Source: Rusavskia elegans (taxonomy: Eukaryota > Ascomycota > Lecanoromycetes > Teloschistales > Teloschistaceae). From it: a DNA stretch of 64,000 nucleotides. Below, in pieces: positions 3,017-62,290 of the stretch. Made by a program: the position numbers and the translations under genes. Numbering within the stretch: the first letter of the stretch is position 1; each line of letters begins with the position of its first letter. The stretch spans positions 310,001 through 374,000 of the forward strand of contig SAUG01000072.1 in NCBI GenBank assembly GCA_011316305.1, read 5' to 3'. Below the pieces are notes generated by a model, which saw only the letters and a list, made by a program, of their open reading frames with translations, did no database searches and was not told where the DNA came from.

Positions 3017-4532
3017 CTAATACGTCCTGGCCAAATTCCTCAAATACCAATCCACCAACCTCCTGCCCACCTTCGCCTCACTAACATGGATTAAATCCCC
3101 CTGCACCGCATAATCCAACTCGCCCCCCAACACCACCTCCCCATCCAACAACCCCCCCTCACTCCACCGCACCTGCCTCGTGCGCTGTTTATTCACCAGC
3201 AACCACCCTCTCAGTTCCTCTTTGCCGACTTCCAGGAACGAAGCCAGTTTGTTGAGGTCCATGGTCGTGTAGAGTTTCAAGTACGATCTCACCGTCGGGT
3301 TGTAGAGCGTGTTGCGGACTTCATCCATGAAGATCGCGGTGTGGTGGTCTACGGGGTCGACGTTTAGCGCCGGGGAGGAGAAATCGGGTGGGGTCGGGGA
3401 GATGAATTTCGGGCATGCGGAACGGAATAGTTCTTCGAAGATGGGCAAGGCTTCGGGGCCGCCTCGTTGCAGGCGGGTGAGTGTGTCTCCGTATTTCTCG
3501 CGGAGGGCGGTATGGATGGTGTCGTCGAGTTTGGTGGGGTTGAAAGCGACGCAGATGGCGACGAGGGCATACATTTGGTCGTTTTTCTTGGTGATGCTGT
3601 CGAATTGGCCTTGATTGTTTTTCTGGAAGTTCTTGGTGCGGGAGACGTAGACGAGGATGTGGGAGAACATTTTGATGGCGTCGGCGTAGCGCCGCATCAT
3701 CATGTAGCAGAATCCGACGTAGTAGTAGGTTGTGAAGTGGGCGGCCATTACGCGGGCGAACATGGCTTTTCGGTTCAGTTCGATGTCGTCTAATGTTTTT
3801 AGGGCGAGACTGAAGTCGCCAAGAAGGCAATGTACGCGGAGGAGACCGATGATGCTGAAGTAGCCGAGCATGCGGTACAGGGGTCGGGAGCCGTAGTCGC
3901 CAGCTACGATGCTGGGGTCGGCGTTCTCTTTCATGGCTGCCAGTTGGGAGGTTATTTCCGAGCGTTGAATGAGGGAGTAGAGGACATTGAGGACGGAGTA
4001 GCAGCCCCAGGTATTGGGGTTATCGCGGAGGAGGGCGAAGTCATCGTCGCCGGTGGAGTTTTGCGCGGCATTGGGATTTCGGGCGATGCGGTGACGGTAG
4101 CGGCAAAAGGATTCAAATTGGTAGATGAATTCGTCGATGACATCCCAGGCCCAGAATGGCTGTAGTATGTCAACAACCTTGATATGACAAACACTGCTGG
4201 GAACAGCTCACGGAAGGTGGTTCGAGATCCACAGGGCCTTCAGAATTTAGGATGTAGTGGAATAAGTTGCAGTAGTTGTCATAACTGGCAAACTTGGTCT
4301 CCAGAGTTGCCTGGTACTCCAACGGCGTCGCAGCAGCGGCGAGCTGTGCTTGCATGTCCTGGAACTGACCTCCACCTCCGCCATATGAGCCTGCCCCATC
4401 CTCCAGACCTTCGTCAAAGTGAGCTTGTTCCTTGTAGTCGTTGACAAGCGCATCCTCCTCTTGGTCAGACTCGTTATCGTCAAGCTTTTGCCGATCCGCC
4501 GTTTGGTACGGAGCACGTTGATAGAGTGCCAT
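3017..4532 (-). CDS. EIF3L: Translation initiation factor eIF3 subunit L
   Basis: Two exons (intron 4160-4211, 52 bp) give 487 aa. eIF3l is a PCI-domain subunit of the eIF3 complex on the 40S ribosome in the cytosol; filamentous fungi keep it although budding yeast lost it. An acidic N terminus (about 1-70) precedes the conserved block FWAWDVIDEFIYQFESFCRY across the splice junction, then RPLYRMLGYFSIIGLLRVH, a TPR-like helical region and the C-terminal PCI winged helix (TTMDLNKLASFLEVG). The start was placed at MALYQRAPYQ; an in-frame Met 14 codons upstream (complement 4574) is possible but less like the family. It is divergent from the nitrilase gene. Confidence 0.95.
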
Positions 4533-19932: not shown

Positions 19933-22004
19933 ATGGCTACTGCTGCTGTTATTCCGTCTTACAACAGAGTCGAGCCAGGCTCTAATCAATTGAAACCAGC
20001 AAGCTATCCGGATACTGGTGTTATCTCATCAGTGGATGCTAATGCCGTTGCCACCGGTTGGGTGGATGAATTCAATCGGGCACTCTCAAGTCAAGATCCC
20101 TCCGCCGTCAAGCAATTGTTCCTCCAAGGCTCTTGTTGGCGAGACCAACTTGGACTCTCATGGGATTACCATAGCTTGTATGGGCCCGATAAGATTGTCT
20201 CCTTCCTCAAGCTAGCGCCAAACGGTAGTCGGGTAATTTCCATCAACATCGATAACAGTAATCCCACCCGCAAGCCGTCAATTGCTGCTGTGGATTTCAT
20301 GGGCAAAGTCAATGGGGTAACATCTTTCTTGACAGTCGAGACAGATGTAGGAAGAGGACGTGGCTTAGTCAGATTACTTCAAGACACTCAAGACAACAAC
20401 AAATGGAAGGCGTTCACTCTCTTTACTGCTATGCATGAGCTGAAGCGCCATGAAGAGACGATCGGAAGCAACAGGCCGCATGGCGTAGATCACGGGGGCC
20501 ATCCAGGGAGGAAGAATTGGCAGGAAAGGAGAGTTGCAACTGAGAACTATGAGGGGGATTTGGAGCCAACAGTCTTGATCCTTGGTGCTGGACAAGGCGG
20601 GCTCACCGCAGCAGCACGTCTGCATCAACTCAAGGTCCCGACTTTGATCATTGACAAGAATGCCCGTGTAGGCGACAATTGGCGCAACAGGTATGTCTGG
20701 TTACCGTTCGTGACACCGAGGTCCATGGATCCTAACGGTCTTGATATGCAGATATCATCAGCTCGTTCTCCATGATCCCGTGTGGTACGACCATCTCCCA
20801 TATGTTCCTTTCCCATCCCATTGGCCAATCTTTACACCAAAAGATAAGTTAGCAGAGTGGTTTGAGTCCTACGCCCGCATCCTTGAGCTCAACGTATGGA
20901 ACTCCACCGCGCTCACCGATGCCAAGTGGGACGATGAAAACCGCCAATGGACTGTGACCCTTATCCGCAAGAAGGCCAGTGGCGAGGAAGAGACCCGAGT
21001 TCTTCACCCTAGACACGTCATTCAGGCTACTGGACACTCTGGCGAAATGAAGATGCCGTCAATCAAGGGTATGGACGGCTTCAAAGGTTACCGGTTGTGC
21101 CACTCCAGCCAATTCAGGGGAGCCGAGAAAATCCCCGAAGGTCAAACCAAGCGCGCCATAGTCGTAGGCTGTTGCAATTCGGGCCACGACATTGCCCAAG
21201 ACTTCTACGAGCATGGGTACCATGTCACTATCGTGCAGCGCTCGTCTACTTATGTCATGTCCTCGAAGAACGGGTTGGGTGTCCTGCTAGGCGGGCTCTA
21301 CGAAGAAGGGGGCCCTGAGACGGAAGACGCGGACCTCATGTTCATGAGCATTCCTAATGCAATGCTGAAGCGTATGCATCAAGACGCGACAGCTGAGATC
21401 ACCAGAAGGGATGAAACGATTCTCAAAGGCCTTGAGAAAGCTGGATTCAAATTGGACGACGGTCCTGATGATGCTGGTTTCTTTATGAAGTACTTCCAGC
21501 GAGGCGGAGGATACTATATTGATGTCGGGTGCTCGCAGCTCATTATCGACGGCAAGATCAAAATAAAGCAAGGGCAAGAGATCGAGGAGGTTAAGCCGAG
21601 CGGGCTATTGTTCAAGGACGGGGAGATGCTCGAGGCTGATGAAATTATCTTTGCAACGGGTTACGAGAACATGAGAGGAACAGCGAGAAAGATATTCGGC
21701 GACGAATTGGCGGAGCGGGTCAAGGTATGCATCTTTCGCAGTTTGTCGGGAGACTCGAGGCTTACACAGCACAGGACGTTTGGGGCTTCGATCAAGAAGG
21801 CGAGTTGCGGACAATGTGGAGGTAAGAAAAGAGGCTCCATCTACTGAGACTAACTTTCATTGACGTTTGAATTTCAGGCGTACTGGACATCCGGGCTTTT
21901 GGTTCTTCGGTGGAAATCTAGCGCTTTGTAGATACTACTCGCGGATGCTGGCTTTGCAAATCAAGGCCATGGAGGAGGGCATCATGAAGTATGAGGACCC
22001 GTGA
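19933..22004 (+). CDS. FAD/NADPH-dependent monooxygenase with N-terminal NTF2-like domain
   Basis: Four exons (introns 20691-20751, 21725-21774 and 21822-21877) give 634 aa. Residues about 35-160 resemble a SnoaL/NTF2-like fold (GWVDEFNRALSSQDPSAVKQ). The FAD Rossmann motif is GAGQGGLTAAARL (about 218), followed by RVGDNWRNRYHQLVLHDP. A second dinucleotide motif, GCCNSGHDIAQDF, would bind NADPH, and the late FATGY signature (IIFATGYEN) is present. This is the plan of fungal flavin-containing monooxygenases related to YUCCA/indole-3-pyruvate and Baeyer-Villiger-like enzymes. Substrate cannot be told. The C-terminal RRTGHPGFWFFGGNLAL block is characteristic of the family. No targeting signal. 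Confidence 0.92.
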
Positions 22005-45201: not shown

Positions 45202-46950
45202 ATGCAGAAAATCGTACGCAGTAAGCCTTTGGCTGCTGCTTGGAAGGGGTTACAGGTGAGGAGAACTCACAGCTAGCAACAGCAGGGCTGAACACTCCGT
45301 AAAGCAACAGCAGGCACCTGTGACAAGGCCATTCCAACAACAGAAGCGATTCCTGTCTATACACGAGTACCTCTCCGCCAACCTGCTCAAAACCGTACGT
45401 GAATAGTTGGAGAATGGCGTTGGCAAGGACTCATATGACATAGTATGGCATTGGTGTACCGAAAGGCGAGGTTGCCCGCTCCGCGGCAGAAGCTGAGACG
45501 ATAGCAAAATCGATCGGTATGTACAGTTTCTTCCATCACCTTACACCAAACGATAGCATTGACAGCTTATACAGGTGGAGATGACATGGTCATCAAGGCA
45601 CAAGTCTTGGCAGGCGGAAGAGGGAAGGGAACCTTCGACAATGGCTTGAAAGGAGGTGTCAGGGTGATTTACTCGTGAGTCTAGCTACGCTACGTTGCAT
45701 TCGAGCTCACCAACTGATTCTCGGTAGACCGACCGAAGCAAAGATGTTCGCGGACCAGATGATAGGCCATAAGCTCGTGACCAAACAAACCGGGGCAGCA
45801 GGCCGCCTCTGCAACGCCGTCTACATTTGCGAGCGGAAATTTGCCCGCCGAGAATTCTATCTCGCTATTCTCATGGACCGTCAATCACAAGCTCCGGTCA
45901 TCATTGCCTCATCTCAGGGTGGAATGGATATCGAGACCGTAGCCAAAGAATCGCCCGAAGCCATCAACACAACGAACATTGATATCCACAAGGGCGTCAC
46001 GGATGAGATGGCGAGGAATATTGCAACCGACCTTGGATTTTCGGAACAGTGCATTGAGGATGCTAAGGACACGATACAGAAACTTTACAAGGTTTTCATG
46101 GAGAAGGATGCGACACAGATCGAAATCAACCCGCTTACGGAAACCTCCGACCATCAGGTTCTCGCGATGGATGCCAAGTTGACTTTCGACGATAACGCAG
46201 ACTTCAGGCAGAAAGAGGTTTTCTCATGGCGAGACAGGTCCCAGGAGGATGCGGATGAGGTCAAAGCTGCAGAGTATGGCAATCCGGTTTTCGCGATGGA
46301 TCTCAATAATAATTTGCAGGCATGGTCTTAACTTCATCAAGCTAGACGGCGATATTGGCTGCTTGGGTATGTAAGGGGATTCTTTAGGTTTGTATGTCGC
46401 TAATTCTATCCAGTCAACGGAGCTGGTCTTGCAATGGCCACTATGGACATAATTAAGCTCAACGGCGGCCAGCCTGCCAATTTCCTTGACGTTGGTGGTG
46501 GAGCGACACCCCAAGCTATCAAGCAAGCCTTCGACCTCATCACGAGCGATCCCAAAGTTACAGCTATATTTGTCAACATCTTCGGCGGTATTGTTCGATG
46601 TGATGCTATCGCACAGGGGCTGATATCGGTGGTCGAAAGTATGAACCTACGGACACCAATCGTGGCAAGGTTGCAGGGTACGAACATGGAGAAGGCGCAT
46701 CAGCTGGTAAGTCGAAGTCGTCAGCCAAAGTTTCGAGTAGCAGAATTAACATGACATGCAGATCAACGAGTCGGGTTTGAAAATCTTTTCGATTGAGGAT
46801 TTGCAAAATGCGGCCGAGAAGTCGGTGCAGTTTTCAAAGGTTGTAAAGATGGGTGCGCTCCTCAGACTTACCCCTACCACATGTTGCTTTACTAACGGCC
46901 GTATAGCGCGTGATATTGACGTTGGCGTTGAGTTCAATCTCGGGTTGTAG
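45202..46950 (+). CDS. LSC2: Succinate--CoA ligase beta subunit, mitochondrial
   Basis: Nine exons (introns 45221-45272, 45395-45443, 45517-45574, 45675-45727, 46274-46319, 46367-46413, 46707-46761 and 46853-46906) give 444 aa, the family length. The TCA-cycle enzyme couples succinyl-CoA cleavage to nucleotide triphosphate formation with the alpha subunit. A Gln/Arg/Ser-rich presequence (MQKIVRTSNSR...[10 protein letters not shown]) targets mitochondria. The ATP-grasp domain shows [14 protein letters not shown] and [10 protein letters not shown]; the CoA-ligase domain shows [20 protein letters not shown] and the signature [16 protein letters not shown]. Exon 1 is only 19 nt of coding sequence. 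The splice at 46274-46319 restores [13 protein letters not shown]. Confidence 0.95.
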
Positions 46951-47313: not shown

Positions 47314-48849
47314 CTAAACATCGGCCATCAATGCATACACCTGCTGCGCAGCTTTTGGCACTTTTAGTCCCGCCTCACCACTCTCTTCAATCTCGATCAT
47401 CTCCTGGGCGAAATCGCAAATGATGGACACCAAAGTCTCAACCTCCGCCTCGGTATTTGCACCGTGGAACATGAGTCGGATCCTGCTCTGCCCCTTGGGA
47501 ACAGTAGGGTAGTCGATTGGGAATGCACTGACGCCAGAAAGTTGCAGATGAAAGACGAGCCAATAGTTGTACCGCTGCCGAGTCCAAAGGGGCACGCAGT
47601 GCGCCAGCCACTCACGCGAATCCCAGTCTTCGCTGACGGGGATGGACAAGATGCCTATTTCTGTAGCTTTGTTCCAGACTGGCTGGGAAGTTATGTTCTT
47701 GAAGAAGTGCTTGACGAGATGCTGAATGTTATCTTGCAGCTAACCAATCTGTTATCCTTCGATGGCCTCGATATGGATGGTACAGCCTCGGATTTGAAAG
47801 ACGGAAAGGAATGTTCACTTACTTTCTGCGTTGCACCCGTCTTCAGCAGATCGTATCCCGCTCGGATGCCCGCCACAAGTGGAAAGGAAGGCGCAGTTGT
47901 GTAGATGACGGAGCGGGCAAAGTTCATCAGTGAGTTTCGCACTGTCGAGTTCCCAAGGATAACAGCTAAACAGAGCGAGTTAGGGATTGTGTTCTGCCAT
48001 GGACGATTGGTGATTCTTACCACCTGTCGAAGCCATTGCCTTTCCGCAAGTGTGGAGCCGAATTGCAATTTCCTTCTCGAGTCCGAGGGCACTGACAAGG
48101 CCAGCACCCTTCGGGCCCAGTACGCCAGTCCCATGGGCTTCGTCCATACAGAACACGACATTTCCTTTGGGGCAGACCTCCTTCGAAACCCCAAGCAGCT
48201 CTTCGATAGGGCACGTATCGCCGTCCATACTATATACCGACTCGACGGATACAATGATGGAGCGCGAACCTTGTTTTATTAAGGGCTGCGAATCCATAAC
48301 GGACACCAATGTGTTTCGGAATGAATCAACATCTTGATGGCGAAAGGGCATCTTGCACAGGCACAAGCTATGTTGCATGCCGTCATGTGTACTTGCATGG
48401 ACGAGCTCGTCATATACAATCGCATCGCCGGGTCTCGGGATGGCAGAGTAGATGGCACCGTTGGCTTCATAGCCTGAGCCTACGATGAGGGCGGTCTCAG
48501 CACCGTGGAAGTCAGCAATCTCTTGCTCGACTTGCTCGATATACTCATAGTTCCCATCCATTAAGCGGGAACCTCCACTATAGAGAGGGAAGTTGGGATG
48601 TCGAGAAAGCTCCTCGAAGAAAGCGGTTCGTATTTGCCCCGTCTTTCCCAGTGAAAGCAGATCGTTAGAGCAGAAGTCGATGGCCTGTCCCGTTTTCCAT
48701 GCGCTCTTGTATCGTGTATACATTCCATGGTCGGCTCTGCGAAGATCAAGGGCCTCTTCAAGGTTTCGATCAAAGACCGAAGCATCCTTCATCCCAGGCC
48801 CCTTCAACTTCTGGTTCTTAATCCACGACGCTAGCATAGCCTCAGCCAT
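47314..48849 (-). CDS. PLP-dependent alpha-oxoamine synthase (BioF/KAPA synthase-like)
   Basis: Three exons (introns 47966-48020 and 47740-47822) give 465 aa. This aminotransferase-fold family condenses an acyl thioester with an amino acid, with loss of CO2. Visible: DFCSNDLLSLG, YSGGSRLMDGNYEYIEQVE, GSGYEANGAI, the PLP-ring pocket MDEAHGTGVLGPKGAGL, and the Schiff-base lysine (about 270) in HTCGKAMASTGGAVILGN. Overall similarity is to 8-amino-7-oxononanoate synthase, but no C-terminal peroxisomal PTS1 is present (it ends ALMADV), unlike fungal BioF. It is divergent from a 3-ketosphinganine-reductase-like SDR and close to an HR-PKS lacking a release domain. I infer that it offloads the polyketide, as Fum8 does in fumonisin synthesis. 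Biotin synthesis remains the main alternative. Confidence 0.88.
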
Positions 48850-49392
48850 TGTCGAACGATAATGTTAAGAAGTGGTTTGTGAAGGTGAAGGTGTGGTATG
48901 TTGTACCTGGTCTGAAGAGGAGGTGTGTCGGAAGAAAAGTGAAGGTGGCTTAGATTCTCCTGATTCAAGCAACGTCTTGTCTGCGACACGACTCAAGCAG
49001 GAATCCTCAAATAAGAACCATCTCTTATCCAACAAAGCCACATCTGTGTGGAAGTCGTCGAAGAACGGAACCTTGACCCTCGGGGCCCCTTCCGAAACGC
49101 TGCTCAACACGGAATCCGGGCGCCGGAACCCGCCCCCCCTGCTGGCGAACGAACCCACTTGATCAATGTCGACGGCCGATGGTCTAGACTACCTTGGTCA
49201 GGACCATGCATTCAGCCAGAGGACGGTGTCGCCTTTCAGCTATTCACATGCGTGCCGGGATCTGCAACGCAAGTGACGGACGATAAGGAATACCCTTCGC
49301 CATCAGCTGGTTAGACTATCAGTCTAAGACGTTCGTATCTGTTACCTAGCCAAACCCATTGTACCATCCACGCTCTTCTTGCTGTCGGCAGC
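48850..49392. promoter_or_regulatory. Bidirectional promoter with two CGG-AAY-CCG motifs
   Basis: 543 bp between the divergent oxoamine synthase and SDR genes. CGGAATCCG at 49110-49118 and CGGAACCCG at 49124-49132 lie 14 bp apart. CGG-N3-CCG is the layout bound by dimeric Zn(II)2Cys6 activators. The same motif recurs upstream of the PKS (51400-51408) and MFS gene (60079-60087). Confidence 0.5.
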
Positions 49393-50633
49393 ATGAATGT
49401 AGCACATGATCTACACAACAAGGTGATTGCTCTTTGGCCGAGATCCCTAGCAACGATTTCATCGTCGCCAATCGTTCTGATATCAGAAGTAGACCATATT
49501 CGTCACAGGGGGTTCCGGAGGGTTGGGTAAAGCGATATCTAAAGCATTAGCTGCCAGAGGTGGGTGTTCATCAACGATAGATCCTTCCTGGTTAATTCAA
49601 CAGGGGCCCACGTTACAATATTCGCCCGTCGGCCGGGTCCTCTTGAGGACGCTAGAAAAGAAATCATGGCAACTACTTCGACGGCGAAGCAAGAAATCGG
49701 CGCGGTAGTCGTTGATCTCGCCAATGCATCTGAGGTCCAGTTTCCAAGGCCTCGATTAGGTTGGCGTGAGGAAGTGGACAAGGTAGCTGACCTCTCATCA
49801 GGTTACCCGAGCATTCAAGACGCAGCCTCGCATTGCAGATATCTTATACTGCGTGGCTGGGGGCAACCATGCTGAAAACGGATTCCTCGTGGACATCGAG
49901 GCAAGCGACCTGGACAATTGCATGAAAAACAATTACTTTGCCTCCGCGTACGCCGCGCAAGCGATGCTGAAGATCTGGACGGAGGACGATAAAGTAGGAA
50001 TGACGCCGGGTTTGGGATCCCGGCTTCGGCAGATCATTTTCATCAACTCTGCGGGAGCATTCCTAGGACTGCCGGGGTCCATTGCCTACACACGTATGTG
50101 CTTCACTTTGCGGTCGAAGACGGGGGCAGAAGCACTGACGGGAATGTCGAAAAGCGGCCAAATGTGCCCTGCGTTGCTTGGCTGATACTTTACGAATGGA
50201 GGTCCTACGGTACACATGCCCGACATCTACCTACACCATCCACTGCGCGTTCCCCGCCGATTTCATCTCGCCTGGATTCGTGCTCGAGCAAGAGACGAAG
50301 ACGCAGCTGACCAAACGCATGCAAGGGTTAGCGACGAAGAGGAGTATTTCGGAGCTCGAATCTCGCTTCCCGTCGTCGGAGACGATTGCTTCGCTCACCA
50401 TTGCAGCGGTGGACAAGGGCGATTTCATGATTTGCCCTGGCTCCATGGCTTCGTCGATGCTGTTCACCAACATGGTTGGGCCTTCACCCAAGCGGGGACT
50501 CGGTATCGTCGACTCTCTATCAGGTATCATTGTGGGATGGTTCGTTTGGCCAGTTCTGAGACGGAAGTGGGAGGCGATGTGTAGGAAAGACGGCGAGGAT
50601 TCTAGAAGGGGTCTGTCTGACCTGACACGCTGA
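49393..50633 (+). CDS. 3-ketosphinganine reductase-like short-chain dehydrogenase
   Basis: Five exons (introns 49423-49492, 49560-49603, 49735-49801 and 50094-50154) give 332 aa, the size of KDSR/Tsc10. The start MNVAHDLHNK joins to TIFVTGGSGGLGKAISKALA, the NAD(P)-binding TGxxxGxG motif. Also seen: RIADILYCVAGGN (NAG-like), IIFINSAGAFLGLPGSIAY with catalytic Ser, and YTPAKCALRCLADTLR with Tyr-x3-Lys. The C-terminal hydrophobic segment (VDSLSGIIVGWFVWPVLRRK) is the membrane anchor typical of Tsc10/KDSR and Fum13. It should reduce a 3-keto-amino lipid-like product at the ER. The first exon (30 nt) and the GTCCAG donor at 49735 are inferred from frame continuity. Confidence 0.87.
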
Positions 50634-51634
50634 AGTGGGCGTACGATCGGGTGCAGGCCTCGCCGTCATCCCTGTCTTCTCGATGTGGCCGATGGTGTCG
50701 TGCTAACACTTGTGTAAGTGAATCAAGCTGATGTAGAAAAGACGCTCGAGGCAAGGTTGCCATGGAATGATTAGTATCTGCTTCAAACAGACCAAAACCT
50801 TTGAAGGGTATGCATGTTGGTTAACGAAGCAAGCCAAATCGACCATGAAGTAGGGTAGGTCGTGTTGCTGCTCTTCTACGTTTTACGCGAATTAAGCTGA
50901 GAAAAGAATACATGATTCGATGCCGTTTTGGCGAACGCAAAGCTGTCTCTCCTATCCCTCTAACTGATAGCGTATTAATCTTACCATTCAATATTCTCCC
51001 CCGCCAGAGTAGCTTGGATTTACACGTCTATGCCTAACGTCGGAGCAATCGATAGAACGAGATCCTTTATCGAGGTAGCGACTGTCGTAGCCTCCCATTG
51101 CGATTGGTCTGACGAGTCTGGTAGGGCAAAGGAAACACGCATCCTAGCAGACGGAGAGATAGCCGGGATAACCTTGTCCCATACCAAGCTTCCCAGCAGT
51201 GCACTCCCGGCTGATCATGGTGTCTGGATTTGGACTGAGGGTCGGTGATATTCAGCCTCTTCAGCGACTGGTACCGTATGACAACCTTTGAATGTTGCGC
51301 TATCCTTTACGTCAACACTGCAATAGGACTACGAAGGACCCAAGGCATCCCGTCCCGTCCTCTGTATTTCGACAATGGGCCTGGAGACGACCGGTGGGCC
51401 GGAACCCGTCAGCCGCGACGGGGCGATTGGATCCGATGATGACAGGGTTCCGTGATGTCCACAGAGTTACCTTACATCCTGCTCAAGATAGCGGTGTGCA
51501 TTTCCATCTTAAAAGCGGGTGTGCATTGCAGAGTCTTGTGGAACAAAGTCGCCGCAGCACACCGTCACCCCATCCCTAGCCACCTAATTCTTGTTCAGCT
51601 AGCTTTGTTTCAATTCAAAGACCTGCTCTACATC
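50634..51634. promoter_or_regulatory. Upstream region of the PKS gene
   Basis: 1.0 kb between SDR and PKS. It contains dispersed repeat copy B2 (51002-51111) and CGGAACCCG at 51400-51408, 227 bp before the PKS start. A stop-free in-frame stretch runs back to 51452 but has no family support. No gene is seen. Confidence 0.45.
51002..51111. repeat. Dispersed repeat family B, copy 2
   Basis: 110 bp matching 35671-35781. This copy keeps G/C where the other has A/T, so it is the less mutated member. It lies between the SDR and PKS genes of the cluster. Confidence 0.8.
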
Positions 51635-54600
51635 ATGGCGCCTCCCGGTCTATCTGTGGTCGACGGCGCGAACGATGATGGTCATCCGTTCACCAATGGC
51701 AATGCCAAAGCAATCACGAATGGTGTGACGCTCAATGGACACGCTGAGCATCAGCTCAACGGCCACCGCACTACCAATGGAACCACACTCAATGGACATT
51801 CTGCGAGAGACTATCCCCCTGTCGACAAGTTCGTCAATGGGAGCAGCAGTGACGGAGAGACCCCCATCGCCGTGTGCGGCATGGCCGTTCGCCTTCCTGG
51901 CGGAGTGACGACGCCTCAGCAACTATGGGACTTCCTGCTTGCCAAAGGCGATGCACGAACGCGTGTCCCCGAGACCCGATACAACATATCCGCCTATCAT
52001 TCCACCACACCAAAGCCTGGCACCGTCGCCACAGAGTATGGATTTTTCCTGGACGAGAGTGTCGATCTGGGAGCTTTGGACACCTCTTTCTTCACCATGC
52101 CACGGACGGAGGTAGAACGTGCAGATCCGCAGCAACGCTTGATGTTGGAAGTCGCGAGGGAGTGCATCGAGGACGCCGGGGTGACCAACTGGAGAGGAAA
52201 GACCATCGGCTGCTATATCGGCAGCTTTGGCGAGGATTGGACCGAGATGTTCGCCAAGGAGTCGCAACAGTATGGTATGCATCGCATTGTTGGTTATGGA
52301 GATTTTGCACTCGCAAACCGCGTCTCTTATGAGATGGATCTACGTGGCCCAAGGTATGGCGTGGCTGCATACCGAAACGCTTCGATGCCTTCGCTAATGC
52401 CTGTTAGCATGACTCTCCGTACGGGCTGCTCGGCAGCCCTCGTGGGCCTTAACGAAGCTTGCATGGCCATTTCCAGGGGCGACTGCGAAGCTGCACTCGT
52501 TGGCGGTGTAAATCTAATTATAGGCCCAGGCATGACGACTGCTATGACAGAGCAAGGGGTGCTGTCCAAGGACGGTTCATGCAAGACTTTCTCCGCCGAT
52601 GCGAACGGATACGCCCGCGGCGAAGCAATCACAGCCATTTATGTCAAGCCGCTTAGTCACGCTATCAGAGATGGCAACCCAGTTCGAGCGGTCATTAGGG
52701 GAACCTCCACTAATGTTGATGGAAAGACTCCTGGAATGTCGTACCCCAGTACGACGGCTCAAGAAGCAGTGATGAGACGAGCATACAAGATCGCCGGTAT
52801 CTCGGACTATGGACTAACCGCCATGGTCGAATGCCACGGCACGGGTACTCCTGTAGGAGACCCGATTGAGGCCAATGCTGTTGCCCGGGTGTTTGGAGAG
52901 GCCGGTGTATATATTGGTTCAGTCAAACCTAACTTGGGACACGCAGAGGGAGCATCAGGGCTGGTGTCAGTGATCAAAATGATACTTGCCTTGGAAAACC
53001 GCATAATACCCCCGAACATTCGGTTCACGGATCCTAACCCGGCTATACCTTTCAAGTCTGCCAAGTTGACTGTCCCTCTTGATCCCATTGCATGGCCACA
53101 GTCACGTCACGAACGTGTGAGCGTAAATTCGTTCGGTATTGGTGGAGCCAATGCTCATGTAATTCTGGATTCTGCCGCGAGCTTCAACGCATTACCTGAA
53201 ATACCGGGAAGACCGACAACACCCCATTTATTATTGTACTCGGCAAATTCTGCGAAATCTCTGAGCAAAATGACTGCGAATTATCAGCAATTTGTGGAAC
53301 AAAACCCAGACAGCGTGGCTGATCTGGCATACACTCTGGCTAACAGGAGGGAGCATCTACCGCATCGGAGTTTTTCTATAGTCAACAATGGTGTCATGGG
53401 CAACATCGCACCACCTACAAAAGCTGGCCAAAGACCTAGCCTCGTGATGGTGTTCACAGGCCAGGGAGCACAGTGGCCATTGATGGGCCGGGAATTAATC
53501 CAATCCAGCACGACCTTCAGAGACAGCATTCGATCTCTGGACCGCTATCTGAGCAAGATGGTGCGAGACATACCGTCATACTCGATTGAAGAAGAACTTC
53601 TGAAGCCAGGAAAGAAAAGTCGATTGAACGTTGCAGAGCTGTCTCAGCCCCTTTGTACTGCAATTCAAATCGCACTGGTTGACACCCTCGATGCCTTAGC
53701 TATCGCGCCTGATGCTGTCGTTGGTCATTCAAGCGGTGAAATTGCTGCAGCATATTGCGCTGGCGCTCTTTCGGCCGAAGAATCGATTATGGCGGCTCAT
53801 CACCGTGGAGCCGTGACCAAGAGACAAACGAGAGTTGGTGCCATGGCAGCTATCGGAATGAGCTGGGAAGAAACTGAGCCATACCTACTTCCGAACGTCA
53901 CGATTGCTTGCGACAACTCATCCAAGAGCGTCACCATTTCGGGCGACGCTGACGCGGTTAAAGCTGTTATTGTCGGTATCCACAATGCACGTCCGGATGT
54001 CATGGCAAAGCTACTCCAAGTCGACAAAGCTTACCATTCCTATCATATGGCCGAGATTGGCGGGTATTATCACTCTTTGATCGATCCGAACATAGGTGGA
54101 AAACAACCCACGAAGCTTTTCTTCTCCAGTGTGACAGGCAGCCTTTTGACCGAAGAACACAATCTTGGTGCGAGATACTGGCAGGACAACCTGGAATCTC
54201 CAGTACGATTCCGCGAGGCGGTCACAAGTATTCTACAGCACGAGGTTGGAAAACATGCCGTCTTCCTCGAGATAGGACCTCATTCAAGCCTCGCGGGTCC
54301 CCTGAGACAAATCTTCACCCAAAACTCCTCTACCGCCCAGTACGCCTCGGCTATGGTCCGCAACCAGAATTGCACGGAGTCTTTACTAACGGCTATGGGA
54401 AAGCTCCATTCGCTTAACCTCCCGATTGACTTGGAGTCATTATATCCTACTGGCTCTTGCCTTCCGGACTTACCCAGATACCCCTGGAATCATGAGGACA
54501 TCTATTGGTATGAGCCTCGAGTTTGTAAAGAGTGGCGATTCCGGAAAAATCCGTATCATGATCTCCTGGGCGTCAGACTGCCCGAAAGTACAGATATCGA

Positions 54601-57600
54601 GCCTATGTGGCGAAATCTACTTCACCTGCAGAACGTTCCTTGGATTCGCGATCATAAAGTTGCAGATGACATTGTATTCCCTTTCGCTTGTTACATTGCT
54701 CTTGCGGGCGAAGCGGTAAGGCAGGTCAGTGGTATCGATCAGGGGTTCAGTCTCCGGAACCTCATTGTGAGCGTGGCGCTCGTTCTACCTGATGGGAAGC
54801 CAACTGAGATCATGACCACGTTTCGGCAGCAGCGCTTGACCAATACTCTTAATAGCCAATGGTGGGAATTCTCAGTTGCCTCTTACAATGGACATGCGTG
54901 GACCAAACACTGCACAGGCGAGGTAACAGCACGGTCCTCAAGTCTTGGGCCGGCGTCGGAGCTCGAGGTTCTTCCGCGCAAGGTTGGTGCACGAAAGTGG
55001 TATGACACCATGCGACGTGCCGGTCTCGAGTTGGGGCCATCTTTCCAAACGCTTGAAACCGTTGACACTTCGACGAACACGGAGAACCGTGCCGTGGGAA
55101 AGGTCCTTAATGGTCGGCAGGGTGACGAGGCTAACTACCACATACATCCAACGGTTCTGGATGGAACATTACAGCTTTTGGGCGCTGCTTGTGTGAATGG
55201 ATACTCACGCAAGTACAAGAACTGGCTTCCAACTAGTATCAACAAGCTCAATATCTCTCGCAGTACTTCGACCATGGTCTCTTGTGTTTCAGCCAGAGCA
55301 ACAGGCAACTCGTCAGTTGTCGGTGAGGCACGTTGTATCTCTGACGGCGTGGTCGTTGTGGAAGCCTCTGGCATACGGACCTCCCTTGCGGAGGCTTCCC
55401 TTTCGTCTGAAACGAAGGATACTCACGCCGCAGGCCGATACGAATGGGGCCTGGACCTTGACTTTTTGGATGTTGGGACACTCACTAGGCCGCCCACAAA
55501 TCATGCCCCATACATGCCTCTACTCCATGAGTTGAGCGATCTTTGCTTGAGATCATCGCAAAAATCGTTGGCTGGTTCAAAAACAAAACTCGATCATATG
55601 CGAAAGTACGCAAATTGGATCGACAAAGAGGCTCAAGCGGTGGCTCTTTCGAGGCCTTACAACCTCTCCGGAGATACCGTTTCTGCCAGAATCCAAGATC
55701 TGGTGCAGCGTCTCTCTGATACGCCAGCAGCCAGTGCAGCAACTGTCCTTTACGAGATTTGTGCTAAGACCGATCGCCTCATGTCGGGCCAGACGCTTGA
55801 AGGTATACTTTCCGACGAGACGCTACGAAATCTCTACAGTTTTATAGATCAACGTGGTAGAAGCAAATTCGTTCAGCACTTGGCTCATTCCATCCCTAAC
55901 ATACGGATTCTCGAGATTGGGACCGGAAGGGGCTCATCAGCGAGGGAGATTTTGGCAGATCTCACCCTCCCCGGCGGCGAAATCCGTTGCTCAAAGTACA
56001 CTCTCACTGCGACGGGCTTTATCTCGGCAAAAGATCAGCAAAAGCTGTTCCCAAATATGGAGTTTACCACTCTTGATATTTCTCAGGATCCGTGGGAGCA
56101 AGGGTTCGAGGACCGCCAATATGACTTAGTTGTTGCAACGAACGTTCTTCATACCACTAAAAACATCCAGAGAAGTCTGGTGAACATCAAGAAACTCCTC
56201 CATCCGGCCGGTCGACTGTTATTGCAGGAACTGTGTCCATCGTCCAAATGGGTCAACTACATCTTTGGAGTCCTGCCAAGCTGGTGGTATGGTAATATGG
56301 ACAACAGGGTTGATGAACCGTACATCGGCAGGGAACGCTGGGAGTCGGAGCTTTGCGCTGCCGGTTTCGATCCAGTAGAAGGAACGGCCTTGGATTCGGA
56401 AGAGCCATATCATCTGAACGCCATCATGGTGGTAAGGCCATCCTCGGTGAAGAAGGCCAGAAAACGAGTGACGCTACTCTGCCGTGACCGAGGAGATGAT
56501 GGCGATGCCACCCAAATTCGATCGCAGCTGGTAAAGAACGGACACGAAGTCGACACGTGTACTATAGAGGACACGCCCCCACCCGGGCAAGATGTCATCT
56601 CTCTGTTGGACAGAGACGGGCCATTCTTCGAGACGATGGACTCTGCCCGCTTCCTGGCATTCAAGCATTTCCTGCTCAACCTTGGCGATTCTGGCGTGCT
56701 GTGGATTAATCCTCTTTGCCAGATAGGTTGCCAAGATCCCAGGTACGCACAAGTCATAGGCCTCGCAAGGACTATCCGCACCGAGATGTTGATTGACTTT
56801 GCCACCTGCGAAGTTGATGATTTGGCTTCGTCATATGAAGCAGTCATGCGGGTCTTCACGAAATTCCATAGGAGAGAAGACAATGACAAGCTGAAACCGG
56901 ATCTCGAGTACGCAGTACGCAAAGGAGAAGTGCATGTGGGAAGGGTTTATCCGCTCGCATTACATAAAGAGCTTCTTATTTCGGAGCCAAGTGACAAAGC
57001 TGTCCTCGACATCGGCACACCAGGTCGTCTGAACACTCTGCATTGGTCTCGACAGGTAATCCCTGAACTTCAAGCCGATCAAGTGGAGATCGAGGTGTAT
57101 TCTGTGGGCTTAAACTTCAGGGTAAGGGGCATCATCATCGCTCGGATTCTCCGCTAACAACGGTGTCAAGGACGTTCTAGTCGCTATGGGCATAGTTGAG
57201 CTCCCTGAACGTGTATTCGGCCTTGAGGCGGCCGGGATCGTACGCCGCACAGGGCCCCAAGTGAAAGGACTCAAAACTGGTGATCGGGTTGCGTGCTTGG
57301 AGCGGCATGCTTTCTCCAACCTCATCAACAGCTCTGAGTTGCTTTGCGTCCAGATCCCCGATTCTCTAACATTCAACGAAGCAGCGACCATGCTCATTCC
57401 ATATGCTACTGTCATCTATTCCCTGATCACCGTCGGAGGCCTCGCGAAAGGACAGGTATGTGAAGTCCATGCCCTGTTGCGTTCATGCTGATCGAGTGTA
57501 GTCCATACTTATACACAGCGCGTGCGGTGGAGTAGGTTTGGCCGCTATACAAATCGCACAGATGATAGGGGCAGATATCTACGTGACCGTTGGCAATGGC

Positions 57601-59387
57601 GAAAAGAGAGATTTCTTGACGCAAAAGTTCGGGATCCCCGGGAATAGGATCTTCAATTCAAGAGACAGCTCGTTTAAGGAGGATATCATGCGTGAAACCC
57701 AAGGTGATGGTGTCGATGTGGTACTCAATTCTCTTTCCGGCGAACTGTTGCACGCTACCTGGTCATGTGTTGCAGCTTTCGGTAAGATGATCGAGATCGG
57801 TAAAAGGGATTTACTCGGCGGTGGCAAGCTCGACATGAATACCTTCCTAGCCAATCGCAGCTATTGCTGTGTCGATATTGATCAATTTAGGAAGAAGCCC
57901 GAGGTTTTGAAGCAGTAAGTTGCGGAGCGAGGAGCATGATGCCCAAGGAAAGATGACTTTAACTAACCATGGCATCTAGGCTCCTCGACTCGACCATGGA
58001 TTACTTTAGGAAGGGATCTATAACCCCCATTCAACCAATCGAGATGTTTAATGCGGCCTCGGTCGAAGATGCATTCAGGTATATGCAAAAAGGTCAGCAC
58101 ATTGGCAGAGTCGGTGTTTCACTACAGGATTCACCGGCCATTGCCGAACCAGCCATTAAAACCGCAGGGAGGGTGCAGACAATCACATTCAACAGTTCCG
58201 GGTCATACCTCCTCGTCGGTGGCCTGGGTGGCCTTGGTCGCGCAATATCCACATGGATGATTGATCACAAGGCTCGGGAATTGATCTTCCTCTCCCGACG
58301 CGCAGGCACGGGTGTCGGGGACGAAACTTTCGTCAACGAGCTCAATAGCATGGGTTGTGAAGTCAAGCTAGTCCAGGGGGACGTCACGAATTATGACGAC
58401 GTGACAAAAGCAGTTGCAGCCGCGAACTTTCCCCTTAAAGGAGTCCTTCAGATGACCATGGTTCTTCGTGATCAGAACTTCAGAAGTATGACACTCGAAG
58501 AATGGAACGCGGCCACTATGCCCAAGGTTCAGGGGACGTGGAATCTCCATAACGCCACCGTGTCCGCTGGTGTCGACCTTGATTTCTTCATTTTTCTCAG
58601 TTCCCTGTCGGGCCTATTCGGACAGCCGGGTCAAGCGAACTATGCCAGTGCGAACGCCTTCTTGGACGCATTCACTCAATACCGAAGGGGACTGGGTCTT
58701 CCAGCTTCGGTGATCGATCTTGGCTCGGTCGAAGATGTCGGCTTCCTTTCACTGAACCAAGGGTTGATGGAGCAACTAAGAGTCGTCGGCTTTACAGGTG
58801 TCACGGAGCGAACTCTTCTCGACGCCATGACAGCAGCCTGTACGCCTTGTCGATCCATGCACAAGAAGACAGCGGTAGCATCCACGGATTCCGGCTTCGT
58901 CGACGGCAACGCTTTCGTCATCGGCCTCGGCTCCGCAGTGCCCCTGAACAGCCCCAGCAACCGCGCTGTCTGGAGGAGAGACCGTCGTATGGCAATCTAC
59001 CACAACGAAGGCCACGGCGGCGCGAGCGGTGACACCCGGGCAGCCAACGAGACGCTGAAATCGTACTTGAACGATGCCAAAGCGGACCCTTCGCTCCTCA
59101 AAACGGCGGAAGCTTCCAACCTCTTCGCGATGGAAATCGGAAGGAAACTGTTGGATCTCTTGCTGCAGCCGCAAGAGGAGCTGAACATGGAGCTGCCGCT
59201 GGTCGACCTCGGATTGGATTCCCTGGTGGCGCTCGAACTGCGGGCGTGGTGGAAACAGGTGTTTTCGTTTGATATCAGTGTACTTGAGATGTTAGGGATG
59301 GGGTCTCTTGCTGCGCTTGGGCAGCATGCTGCTGATGGTCTCATGGCAATTGCGCTGGAAGAGAACGGCAAGATCGGATCTGCATAG
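51635..59387 (+). CDS. Highly reducing type I polyketide synthase
   Basis: Five exons (introns 52354-52407, 57122-57170, 57456-57501 and 57915-57979) give 2512 aa. After an Asn-Gly-rich leader: KS (about 77-510; Cys247 in [10 protein letters not shown], His in [13 protein letters not shown] and KPNLGHAEG); AT ([12 protein letters not shown] about 588, Ser in [10 protein letters not shown] about 678); DH (His in [12 protein letters not shown] about 987, Asp in [10 protein letters not shown]); C-methyltransferase ([12 protein letters not shown] about 1406); ER (GTPGRLNTL to [15 protein letters not shown], about 1770-2080); KR (GGLGGLGRA about 2123, Ser/Tyr in [19 protein letters not shown]); ACP ([13 protein letters not shown], Ser about 2455). 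No TE, R or C domain follows the ACP, so release must be in trans. The start MAPPGLSVV was preferred over an in-frame Met at 51452. DH carries Ala where this clade usually has Gly. Confidence 0.96.
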
Positions 59388-60264
59388 CTGTCTCTGGCTA
59401 TCGGTGATTGGGACTGGACAGCGAGCTATATGCGGGCGGAAGTGGGAGGCCGAGTTTCAGTGTGAATCATGCATTTGTATTTACTTAAAAGGCAATATTT
59501 TAGACATCAGCTGTCTGTTGCCAGCACGGCTTGTGATTTGAGTAGCTCTCTGAAGGGTACCGGTAAGGTACCTCTGTGCTTTTGTTATGGCGACGTCCTG
59601 TCGCAATAGCCGTACCATATCGTCTAGTGCGTGCCAAGAGATTAGATTCGCACATGCCAGGGCCGCTCCCGTTGCATTTACCAACCGCCTGGGACAATGG
59701 AAGGCAAACAGCGCTCGGAAGATTACGCCCATGACAGCCATGCACACCGCATTTCTTCGCTCGGACCATGAGAGGGGTGATCTTCACAAGCCTTAGGTCA
59801 TTTCCGCCGAGGAGAGGCCCTTCTACTCCTTGCTTACCATGCATGCTGAATCTGACAACCCATCGAGCCGGTGCGCAGTAAAGAGCATTACATCAAGTAG
59901 GACGTGGTCTTTGCAGTAAGTAGGTCTCTTGGTTTCTTTGGTGCCGATGTTTCACTACTTATCATCATGTCTGTGCTGCGGTATTGTTCGAAAGACCTGT
60001 CAACTGCCCTTCATTTCAACATCACTACTGTCTAGTGCATCAATGGATTTGTACAAGTAAGTCATGCTGCGCGGCTGCCGGAATCCGAAGGGACACGGCC
60101 GGGACCCTGACAGCAGGACGAGCTCAACAGTCAACATACCCTTTGTCCCACCGAAATGAGGTGAACTGGAGATCCATCAAAGCTAGGGCTATTGTTCTCG
60201 CGTATTACCATCACAGAGTGCTTTTGCCCGGCCATCTCATTAATCCCACGGAATCACTTTCAAC
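59388..60264. promoter_or_regulatory. PKS 3' flank and MFS promoter
   Basis: 877 bp. CGGAATCCG at 60079-60087 lies 178 bp upstream of the MFS start and is the fourth copy of the cluster motif. No gene is seen. Confidence 0.45.
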
Positions 60265-62290
60265 ATGGCACCTTCGATCAATGCACAGAATGCTAATCAA
60301 CTGCGATCCGATGCGTCGGCGCAACAGGTCAACCATGTTTTCAGACCCAGGAAGTCCTTCATCCTTGCCTTTGCTTCCATCTGCATCATCACTCTAGCCG
60401 CAGCTCTTGATGCTACCTCTCTGAGCATCGCCCTTCCAGTCATCACCGAAAGGCTCAATGGTACCGCCCTCGAGGCTTTCTGGTCGGGAACCTCCTTTCT
60501 CGTGGCCTCGGCCGTTGTCCAGCCCGTCATTGGGGGATTAAGCCATGTGTTTGGGAGAAAGCAGGTAGGATCCCCCAATGGATGTTGCTTGGGGAGAAGC
60601 TAACCCTTACCATCGTCTCATTCTAGTTGGTGCTCATCTCGGCTTTTCTTTTCGCCAGTGGGTCTCTCATAGGTGCCCTAGCTGTCAATTTCGCCATCTT
60701 GTTGGTCGGCATCCTCAGAAGCTGGATTCAAGCACATGCTGACCATCTCAGACTTGGTGGCCGCACTGTTCAAGGTCTGGGAGGCGGAGGAATCTTGGCT
60801 CTTGGGGAGATCCTCACCACAGACCTCGTCCCCCTGTCTGTTCGAGGTTCATGGTTGGGCTACATTGGTATTCAATCTCCATATCAGCCTCACCGTCCCC
60901 CAGCTCACTTCTTTCAGGTGGTATATGGGCCATCGGGACTGTCTTGGGACCTCTGACGGGTGGAGGTGAGCGTTGCATACCTCATGACTGATTAATTTCT
61001 GACTTTCCAAAGCCTTCGCCCAAGCCTCCCACGCAAGCTGGAGGTGGATCTTCTGGATCAACTTACCCCTCATCGGTATCGGGACCATCGCGGTTGTCTT
61101 CTTCTTGAAGATTCAAAGACTACAGGGAGCGATATCTCTCAAAATTCGTAGGTTCGATTGGGTCGGATCTACCATCTTCATCGCTTCTGCAGTCTCCTTT
61201 TTGATACCCATAACGTGGGGTACGTACATCGTCGATAAACCGCTAAACCTGCCTTTCCCACTTACCATCCCGATAGGCGGTGTAATGTATCCATGGGACT
61301 CGTGGCACACTCTCGTTCCGATCTTCATTGGGGCAGCTGGACTAGTAGCATCAGGTTTCTACGAGTACAGTCTCTCGGCCAAAGCGTTCGACGCAGAAGG
61401 GAACAGCCTTCCCGGGAACAAGATACAGCCCATCTTGCGATTCAGCATTTTCAACAATTGGACATTGAAATTGCTCTATTTCCAGACACTGATCCACGGG
61501 ATGATCCTCTGGTCACTGTTGTATTACCTTCCTCTCTACTACGAGGGCGTCCGAGGGTACACGCCCATCATCGCAGGTATCGCTGTCCTCCCCGAGACCG
61601 TCCTCATTGCCCGTAAGCCCTAATCCACAAACCCTCAGAAATGAGCACTGAAAAGTTCCAGCAATATCAATATTGATTGGGGTTGTAAGTTCCAAAACCG
61701 GGCGATACAGATGGGCGATTTGGATTGCGTGGGCAATGACAACCGTCGGATTCGGTTTACTTTATCTCCTCGATTCGAACACCAGTATCCCCGCTTTCAT
61801 CTTCCTGAACGTCCCCGTAGCCATTGGAACTGGCATGGCTTTCATTTCCATGTCGCTAGGCATCCAAGCTGCCGGCAGGCCACAGGATGCGGGTCATTCC
61901 ATCACCTTCTACTCATTTATTCGCGTCTTTGGTCAGTCCCTCGGCGTTGGCGTTGGAGGAGTTGTTTTGCAGAACCAAATGCGAGAGAACCTGAACAAAT
62001 ACACATTGCTAGCTCATTCGGCTGAGGAATACAGCAGAGATTCGACCGTGGTCGTTAGCATTATTCAGGGGATGGAGCGGGGGATCGAGAAGACACAGCT
62101 CGTTCAGGCGTACGCGGATTCTATCAAGACGATCTGGCTTGTCATGGCTGCTCTGAGTGGAGCGGTCTTCATCTCTACTCTATTTGTGAAAGGGTATTCT
62201 CTGGATCAGAAGCTGGAGACCCTTCAGGGACTCAACGACGGGGATAGCGAGAAGGCGGAGGAAGGAATCGAACAAGCAGCCGTTACTTAA
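60265..62290 (+). CDS. MFS transporter, probable metabolite exporter
   Basis: Five exons (introns 60565-60626, 60868-60917, 60966-61012 and 61613-61661) give 605 aa. The family is the fungal 14-span drug:H+ antiporter type often found in metabolite clusters. TM1 carries ALDATSLSIALPVITERL (motif D1-like). Also seen: GRKQLVLISAFLF (motif A loop), GRTVQGLGGGGILAL (motif B with Arg and Gly run), IGTVLGPLTGGAFAQ (antiporter motif C) and SWRWIFWINLPLIG. Reading through exon 2 leaves about 17 extra residues (ILRSWIQAHADHL...) just before GRTVQG, where relatives are continuous. No good GT-AG intron removes them, so this spot may hold a non-canonical intron or insertion. Presumed plasma-membrane export of the cluster product. 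Confidence 0.92.

What the first reader, a model, noticed from the sequence alone, without database searches (positions are those of the whole stretch)
47314..62290. Compact cluster with sphinganine-analogue logic: oxoamine synthase, 3-keto reductase, HR-PKS and exporter
Seen: four neighbouring genes encode a BioF-like alpha-oxoamine synthase, a Tsc10/KDSR-like SDR with C-terminal anchor, an HR-PKS ending at its ACP, and an MFS transporter. Established: fumonisin (Fum1 PKS, Fum8 oxoamine synthase, Fum13 reductase), AAL toxin and sphingofungin pathways use this trio to make 2-amino-3-hydroxy long-chain products that mimic sphinganine. Inference: the cluster makes a methyl-branched amino-alcohol lipid analogue. 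It differs in having a stand-alone 465-aa oxoamine synthase closer to KAPA synthase than to serine palmitoyltransferase, and in lacking any P450 here, so the product may be simpler or new.
Basis: partly seen in the sequence, partly recalled or inferred. Interest (0 to 1): 0.88.

Follow-up and report, generated by a model that had tools for sequence, protein, structure and literature searches.

The report
Lichen fungus sphinganine-mimic gene cluster
A fungus that is probably a Xanthoria-like lichen former carries a small gene cluster whose three core enzymes are close relatives of those of the antifungal sphingofungin pathway; it likely builds and exports a simple sphingolipid look-alike, which makes it a new member of a known kind.

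Summary
In detail: 47314-62290 holds intact, spliceable genes for a 465-aa alpha-oxoamine synthase (AOS), a 332-aa ketosphinganine-reductase-like SDR, a 2530-aa highly reducing PKS ending at its ACP, and a 588-aa MFS transporter. A Zn2Cys6 regulator lies just past the window end.

The nearest solved structures of the AOS are the SphA-type chains 9dos and 9pep (700 and 682 bits; next best 143). In trees of selected homologs all three core enzymes fall in the clade that holds the sphingofungin and Fusarium SAM1-type proteins. A stand-alone BioF-like AOS is therefore normal for this kind. No bioB match was found in the genome, and a separate Tsc10-like gene exists.

New here: both solved SphA chains, and 5 of 120 listed homologs, carry five changed pocket residues (His-Ala-Ser to His-Phe/Leu-Ser, and four more); the window enzyme keeps the ancestral-type ones. 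It is predicted to use an ordinary amino acid, alanine favoured, rather than aminomalonate. No P450 or dioxygenase was found nearby.

The three-gene combination was published in 2020, Lecanoromycetes included. The product is unproven.

The parts
47314..48849 (-). Alpha-oxoamine synthase, SphA/SAM1-clade, 465 aa; exons 48021-48849, 47823-47965, 47314-47739; PLP lysine K270, H151-A152-S153, S94 at the ALAS-83 position
   Evidence: Splice model; Pfam PF00155; SphA-type chains 9dos/9pep at 700/682 bits; trees; residues
49393..50633 (+). 3-ketosphinganine reductase-like SDR (SphF/Tsc10 type), 332 aa; exons 49393-49422, 49493-49559, 49604-49734, 49802-50093, 50155-50633; TGGSGGLG and YTPAK motifs; C-terminal hydrophobic segment
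   Evidence: Splice model; Pfam; only close solved match TSC10 8jat; tree; C-terminus aligned with SphF-type proteins
51635..59387 (+). Highly reducing PKS KS-AT-DH-MT-ER-KR-ACP, 2530 aa; exons 51635-57121, 57171-57455, 57502-57914, 57980-59387; no release domain after the ACP
   Evidence: Splice model; Pfam; catalytic residues conserved; tree
60265..62290 (+). MFS transporter, 588 aa; exons 60265-60564, 60627-60700, 60752-60867, 60918-60965, 61013-61612, 61662-62290; cluster membership by adjacency only
   Evidence: Splice model; weak per-exon MFS_1 matches, each under the Pfam cut-off
45585..46331 (+). Left neighbour: ATP-grasp (succinyl-CoA ligase-type) exon, taken as outside the cluster
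   Evidence: Pfam PF08442

Best explanation
This is a compact SAM1-clade cluster, related in its three core proteins to the sphingofungin pathway, that is predicted to make and export a simple sphinganine-like amino alcohol. Mechanism: the iterative PKS would build a reduced long acyl chain on its ACP (inferred from its domains). Having no release domain, the PKS would hand the chain to the stand-alone PLP enzyme, which condenses it with an amino acid and frees a 2-amino-3-ketone (inferred from SphA). The membrane-anchored SDR would reduce C3 to the alcohol (inferred from SphF/Tsc10). The MFS protein would export the product and the Zn2Cys6 protein next to it would switch the genes on (adjacency only). 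Because the AOS keeps the family His-Ala-Ser motif and lacks the five-residue SphA signature, the amino acid is predicted to be an ordinary, decarboxylating one, alanine favoured because Ser94 sits at the ALAS-83 position. With no oxygenase found nearby, the product would stay a plain 2-amino-3-hydroxy lipid.
For: Clade: AOS nearest solved relatives 9dos/9pep, 700/682 bits against 143 for the next; 42 of 70 rows, with the window AOS, P0030 and P0036, form one group, SH-aLRT 99; careful tree, 13 of 28 rows, 99/97; PKS in a 31-of-45-row group with the A. fumigatus and Paecilomyces PKSs, 99; SDR in a 25-of-36-row group with the A. fumigatus SDR, 100. Identities: AOS 65% and 64% to P0030 and P0036, PKS 60% to A. 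fumigatus P0270, SDR 62% to A. fumigatus P0158. Linkage elsewhere: and consecutive locus tags such as ABKA04_008795/008796/008797. Precedents: SAM cluster logic and deletion of the AOD PKS (PMC7376913); SphA and SphF act as SPT and 3-ketoreductase (PMC10936153). Active sites: PKS catalytic residues; AOS Lys, Asp, His, Thr, Arg. Pocket: window S-HAS-D-H-K-R-Y; SphA signature in 5 of 120 hits and in both solved chains. Own housekeeping genes apart: Tsc10-like C83, ALAS-like C61 and LCB2-like C185 (read by eye). No P450 or TauD/2OG/PhyH match near.
Against: No expression, chemistry or genetics. The Ser83 rule also gives alanine for SAM1 enzymes in general, yet A. fumigatus SphA uses aminomalonate, so that rule alone is weak. 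Loss of His-Ala-Ser is not confined to SphA: 6 further hits have HMS (2), HAN, HPS, HTS or HKS, so HAS alone is no substrate code. MFS and regulator were not tested for linkage in other genomes. Chain length and methylation cannot be read from the sequence. The trees used selected homologs, and the outgroups are long branches.
Confidence: 0.72

Rival explanations
1. A reduced sphingofungin pathway: the AOS uses aminomalonate and the product is a presphingofungin-like 2-amino-3-hydroxy acid.
For: The three core enzymes are 60-65% identical to the Aspergillus ones and lie in one clade with them.
Against: None of the five SphA signature residues is present in the window AOS; in the trees the signature-bearing proteins form a nested group away from it.
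Confidence: 0.12
2. A second route to ordinary sphingoid bases: AOS and SDR support the fungus's own sphingolipid synthesis, with the product a self-protection or membrane lipid rather than a secreted inhibitor.
For: SphA has SPT activity in vitro and SphF complements a yeast tsc10 strain; both lessen myriocin toxicity (PMC10936153). The AOS keeps the ordinary pocket.
Against: The genome has its own Tsc10-like and LCB2-like genes; the AOS and SDR travel with the PKS in other fungi.
Confidence: 0.12
3. A biotin-pathway BioF that happens to lie beside a PKS.
For: BioF is the best-scoring NCBIfam model for the AOS.
Against: 238 bits against the bioF cut-off of 426; no bioB match in the genome; SphA-type chains score far above BioF chains; AOS and PKS homologs share contigs in other fungi.
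Confidence: 0.02

Closest known systems
SAM1-type clusters (Fusarium SAM1 and relatives; PMC7376913)
   Same: PKS + class II aminotransferase (AOS) + SDR; all three proteins in the same clades as proteins that I take to be SAM1-type from taxon and position. Lecanoromycetes are already among the classes in which SAM clusters were reported.
   Different: Fusarium SAM1 also has a dioxygenase and a P450, and the Metarhizium one a dioxygenase; neither was found near here.
Sphingofungin cluster (SphA, SphB, SphF; Aspergillus fumigatus, Paecilomyces variotii)
   Same: Stand-alone AOS of the same size class, HR-PKS and ER-type 3-ketoreductase with a conserved C-terminal segment.
   Different: The window AOS lacks the five-residue SphA signature; no counterpart of the P450 SphH was found; SphC and SphE counterparts were not sought by sequence.
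AOD cluster (SAM5, 2-amino-14,16-dimethyloctadecan-3-ol)
   Same: Core three enzymes without known further enzymes; product is a plain 2-amino-3-ol from alanine.
   Different: The PKSs of two AOD-producing Fusarium species (P0354, P0358; taken to be SAM5) fall outside the 31-row group and keep GAGTGG in the methyltransferase, where the window has GTGRG.
Fumonisin cluster (Fum1, Fum8, Fum13)
   Same: Same chemical logic (PMC7376913).
   Different: Many further tailoring genes there. Fum1 and Fum8 sequences were not fetched or placed in a tree.

Membership tests
Fungal SAM clusters (PMC7376913) | PKS, aminotransferase and SDR genes together | tested here: met
Fungal SAM clusters (PMC7376913) | PKS related to SAM PKSs (reducing clade III near Fum1) | tested here: met
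   Met for grouping with Fusarium and A. fumigatus SAM1-type PKSs; closeness to Fum1 itself was not tested
Fungal SAM clusters (PMC7376913) | Sphinganine-analog product | not testable with these tools
   Needs chemistry
SAM1 group | AOS, SDR and PKS each inside the SAM1/sphingofungin clade | tested here: met
   labels of the Fusarium and Aspergillus proteins are inferred from taxon and position
SAM1 group | Dioxygenase and/or P450 in the cluster | tested here: not met
   such genes vary between published SAM1-like clusters
Sphingofungin cluster proper | AOS with the SphA pocket (F/L152, T156, N266, G294, N298) | tested here: not met
   solved chains. The signature is my own definition, from 5 hits and 2 chains
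Sphingofungin cluster proper | P450 SphH counterpart | tested here: not met
   by the Pfam P450 model
Fumonisin cluster | Fum1/Fum8 clade membership | not tested
   Sequences not fetched
8-amino-7-oxononanoate synthase (biotin) | Score over the bioF equivalog cut-off | tested here: not met
   237.9 against 426.45 bits
3-ketosphinganine reductase (Tsc10/SphF) | Sequence kinship to Tsc10, SDR motifs, C-terminal membrane segment | tested here: met
   8jat 75.5 bits, next best 40.8; motifs and hydropathy

The most novel reading that the evidence does not exclude
The lichen cluster preserves the older, simple form of the SAM1 pathway: an alanine-type AOS with the family His-Ala-Ser pocket makes an unoxidised, exported 1-deoxysphinganine-like amino alcohol, and the sphingofungin head group arose later by a five-residue change of the pocket in one branch of the same clade.
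Probability: 0.42. Interest if true: 0.6.

Novelty: new member of a known kind. Interest (0 to 1): 0.4.

Why it matters
It puts a complete, minimal sphinganine-analog pathway into a probable lichen former, where a secreted sphingoid mimic could act on the alga, on rival fungi or on grazers (speculation). It also gives a testable reading of substrate choice: the review PMC6148460 calls His-Ala-Ser strictly conserved in the AOS family (passages), both solved SphA-type chains break it, and this relative does not. If the lichen enzyme uses alanine, the sphingofungin head group can be traced to a small set of pocket changes.

Tried and rejected
Rejected: biotin BioF; sole housekeeping Tsc10; a sphingofungin cluster proper. 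Considered: horizontal transfer from Hypoxylaceae, because their AOS is 71-75% identical to the window AOS while some other lichen AOSs are about 60%; not supported by the AOS trees, where the lichen Xylographa is the sister (92; 99/91), and not seen in the PKS tree, where the Xanthoria pair is sister to the rest of the group. No formal test was run.

'Methyl-branched' could be neither confirmed nor excluded. The window PKS keeps G-x-G-x-G with Arg, His and Glu; 34 of 90 aligned rows (window included) have G-x-G-x-G with His and Glu; A. fumigatus P0270 has Arg, and P0283-P0286 of P. variotii have Tyr, at the His. That the His and Glu are catalytic, and that sphingofungins are unbranched, is recalled, not from a call.

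Counts dropped before trees: 67 of 120 AOS hits, 23 of 120, 44 of 120 PKS hits (about 1000 N-terminal residues), 34 of 120 SDR hits. 89 of 120 PKS hits, those over 1700 aa, went into. Of 4936 AOS, 133 SDR and 6957 PKS proteins found, the tool lists 120 each.

Literature: searches. No held paper joins Teloschistaceae and sphingofungin; two hold lichen, sphingofungin and gene cluster, seen as a listing only. 'Presphingofungin' is in no held paper. Supplements could not be read, so which Lecanoromycetes PMC7376913 lists is unknown to me.
Full report
WHAT IS THERE. The window lies in a 44.16-Mb genome of 217 contigs, at C191:310001-374000. The AOS's best hit is 96% identical, from 'Xanthoria sp. 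2 TBL-2021', and the PKS's best full-length hit is 87% identical, from Xanthoria steineri, so I take the organism to be a Xanthoria-like lichen former; that is inference. The four genes splice cleanly. Just beyond the window, L009:2285-2368 (285 bases past the window end) encodes a Zn2Cys6 motif and L009:3325-4017 a Fungal_trans domain: a likely regulator. Left of the AOS lies an ATP-grasp, succinyl-CoA-ligase-type exon. To the right, further out, are AAA-helicase-type reading frames.

THE AOS. NCBIfam's best model is bioF at 238 bits, far under its cut-off of 426. Among solved structures the best chains are 9dos (named 8-amino-7-oxononanoate synthase by its depositors; SphA-type by sequence) at 700 bits and 9pep (named SphA) at 682; the next is an ALAS at 143, the best BioF 122, the best SPT 93. 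In a quick tree of 70 rows the window AOS sits in a 42-row group (SH-aLRT 99) that also holds P0030 (A. udagawae), P0036 (P. variotii), Metarhizium, Hypoxylon and Fusarium proteins. A careful tree of 28 rows, with the genome's own ALAS-like and LCB2-like proteins as outgroup, gives the same group (13 rows, 99/97) and pairs the Xanthoria proteins with the lichen Xylographa (99/91). The outgroup branches are very long.

THE OTHER TWO CORE ENZYMES. The PKS and its X. steineri relative are sister to 29 rows that include the A. fumigatus PKS P0270, the Paecilomyces PKS and the Fusarium/Metarhizium pair; the 31 rows together have 99 support. That Fusarium groups with Metarhizium is as reported for SAM1 (PMC7376913 section 8); the labels SAM1, SphB and SphF for individual hits are inferred from taxon and position. 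The SDR falls in a 25-row group with the A. fumigatus SDR P0158 (100), and its C-terminal segment GLGIVDSL...PVLRRKWE is shared with SphF-type proteins; a C-terminal helix-loop-helix of SphF directs it to small vesicles (PMC10936153 section 8).

LINKAGE ELSEWHERE. 44 of 112 AOS hits share a contig length with a listed SDR or PKS hit, 16 contig lengths with both; shifted controls gave 0-1. Locus tags are consecutive or nearly so in Annulohypoxylon (ABKA04_008795-8797), Psora (Q9217_000116, 117, 119), Nemania (ONZ43_g6088-6089), Monosporascus (DL770_004839-4840) and others, but further apart in Pseudocercospora (AC578_4896, 4908, 4918). Some of these pairs, Psora, Circinaria and Icmadophila among them, lie in sister groups outside the 42-row AOS group.

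REFUTATION TESTS. bioB: no match in the genome (the control rang in 13 of 14 prokaryotes, over the cut-off in 7). The genome has two more BioF-like genes or remnants. Tsc10: a second, diverged SDR at C83 whose only solved match is TSC10 (75 bits). So neither 'the only BioF' nor 'the sole Tsc10' holds. Co-expression: not testable here.

POCKET. PMC6148460 (passages) says that His-Ala-Ser, whose His stacks on PLP and contacts the substrate carboxylate, is strictly conserved in the family. In 121 aligned rows (window + 120 hits) HAS occurs in 110; the 11 others are HFS 4, HMS 2, and HAN, HLS, HPS, HTS, HKS one each. Five hits (P0030, P0036, P0038, P0039, P0069) share F/L152, T156, N266, G294, N298; both solved SphA-type chains show the same letters in the printed alignments. 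The window has A, D, H, R, Y there. A. fumigatus SphA condenses aminomalonate (PMC10936153), and swapping in the P. variotii enzyme changed the head group (PMC9603476, passages). Ser94 aligns with E. coli BioF Ser76, the ALAS-83 position, for which PMC7376913 predicts alanine in SAM1. Since SphA has the same Ser, the alanine call rests on the whole pocket and is a prediction.

PKS. KS Cys/His/His, AT Ser, DH His/Asp, KR Tyr and ACP Ser are in place. The methyltransferase keeps GTGRG, His1506 and Glu1532; the PKSs of two AOD-producing species keep GAGTGG. Methylation is left open.

TAILORING. The only P450 matches listed on the contig start at C191:443579. TauD, 2OG-FeII and PhyH models match elsewhere in the genome, none on C191. 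These searches read exon by exon and can miss short exons.

PRIOR KNOWLEDGE. PMC7376913 (abstract and sections 5, 8, 9, 10, 12, plus passages) predicted exactly this three-gene combination, found it in 43 non-Fusarium species of four classes, Lecanoromycetes included (26 of the 43 with an SDR), and tied SAM5 to AOD by PKS deletion. PMC10936153 was read in abstract and sections 3, 7 and 8. PMC11051388 was seen in passages.

VERDICT. A new member of the SAM1 kind, minimal in its enzymes, with a non-SphA pocket. Family and general chemistry are well supported; substrate, chain and biological role are predictions.

Noticed in passing
G000:C167, L031:6270-7742 (+), L032:7177-9999 (-), L033:713-1978 and 3201-4298 (-): A second BioF-like AOS beside PKS reading frames (read by eye), an AflR/Zn_clus regulator and an MFS gene; a further AOS + HR-PKS locus in the same genome, outside the SphA group in the trees.
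   Followed up: partly
G000:C113, L028:3266-7457: Remnants of a third pair: the start of a KS, and KR and ACP pieces of a PKS with the middle missing, and only the C-terminal part of an AOS. Looks decayed; a relative with a full-length AOS exists in Xanthoria sp. 1 (P0047, by eye).
   Followed up: partly
G000, whole genome: No bioB match: the fungus may depend on outside biotin, for instance from its lichen partners.
   Followed up: no
P0038 (Trichophyton), alignment position 270 of the window AOS: This SphA-signature protein has Glu where the PLP lysine should be; it may be inactive or misannotated.
   Followed up: no
P0052 and P0054 (Hypoxylon, Xylariaceae), P0064, P0071: Other AOS homologs that break His-Ala-Ser in other ways (HMS, HTS, HKS); substrates unknown.
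   Followed up: no
window 20714-21844 (+): FMO-like flavin monooxygenase exon, about 25 kb from the cluster; taken as unrelated.
   Followed up: no
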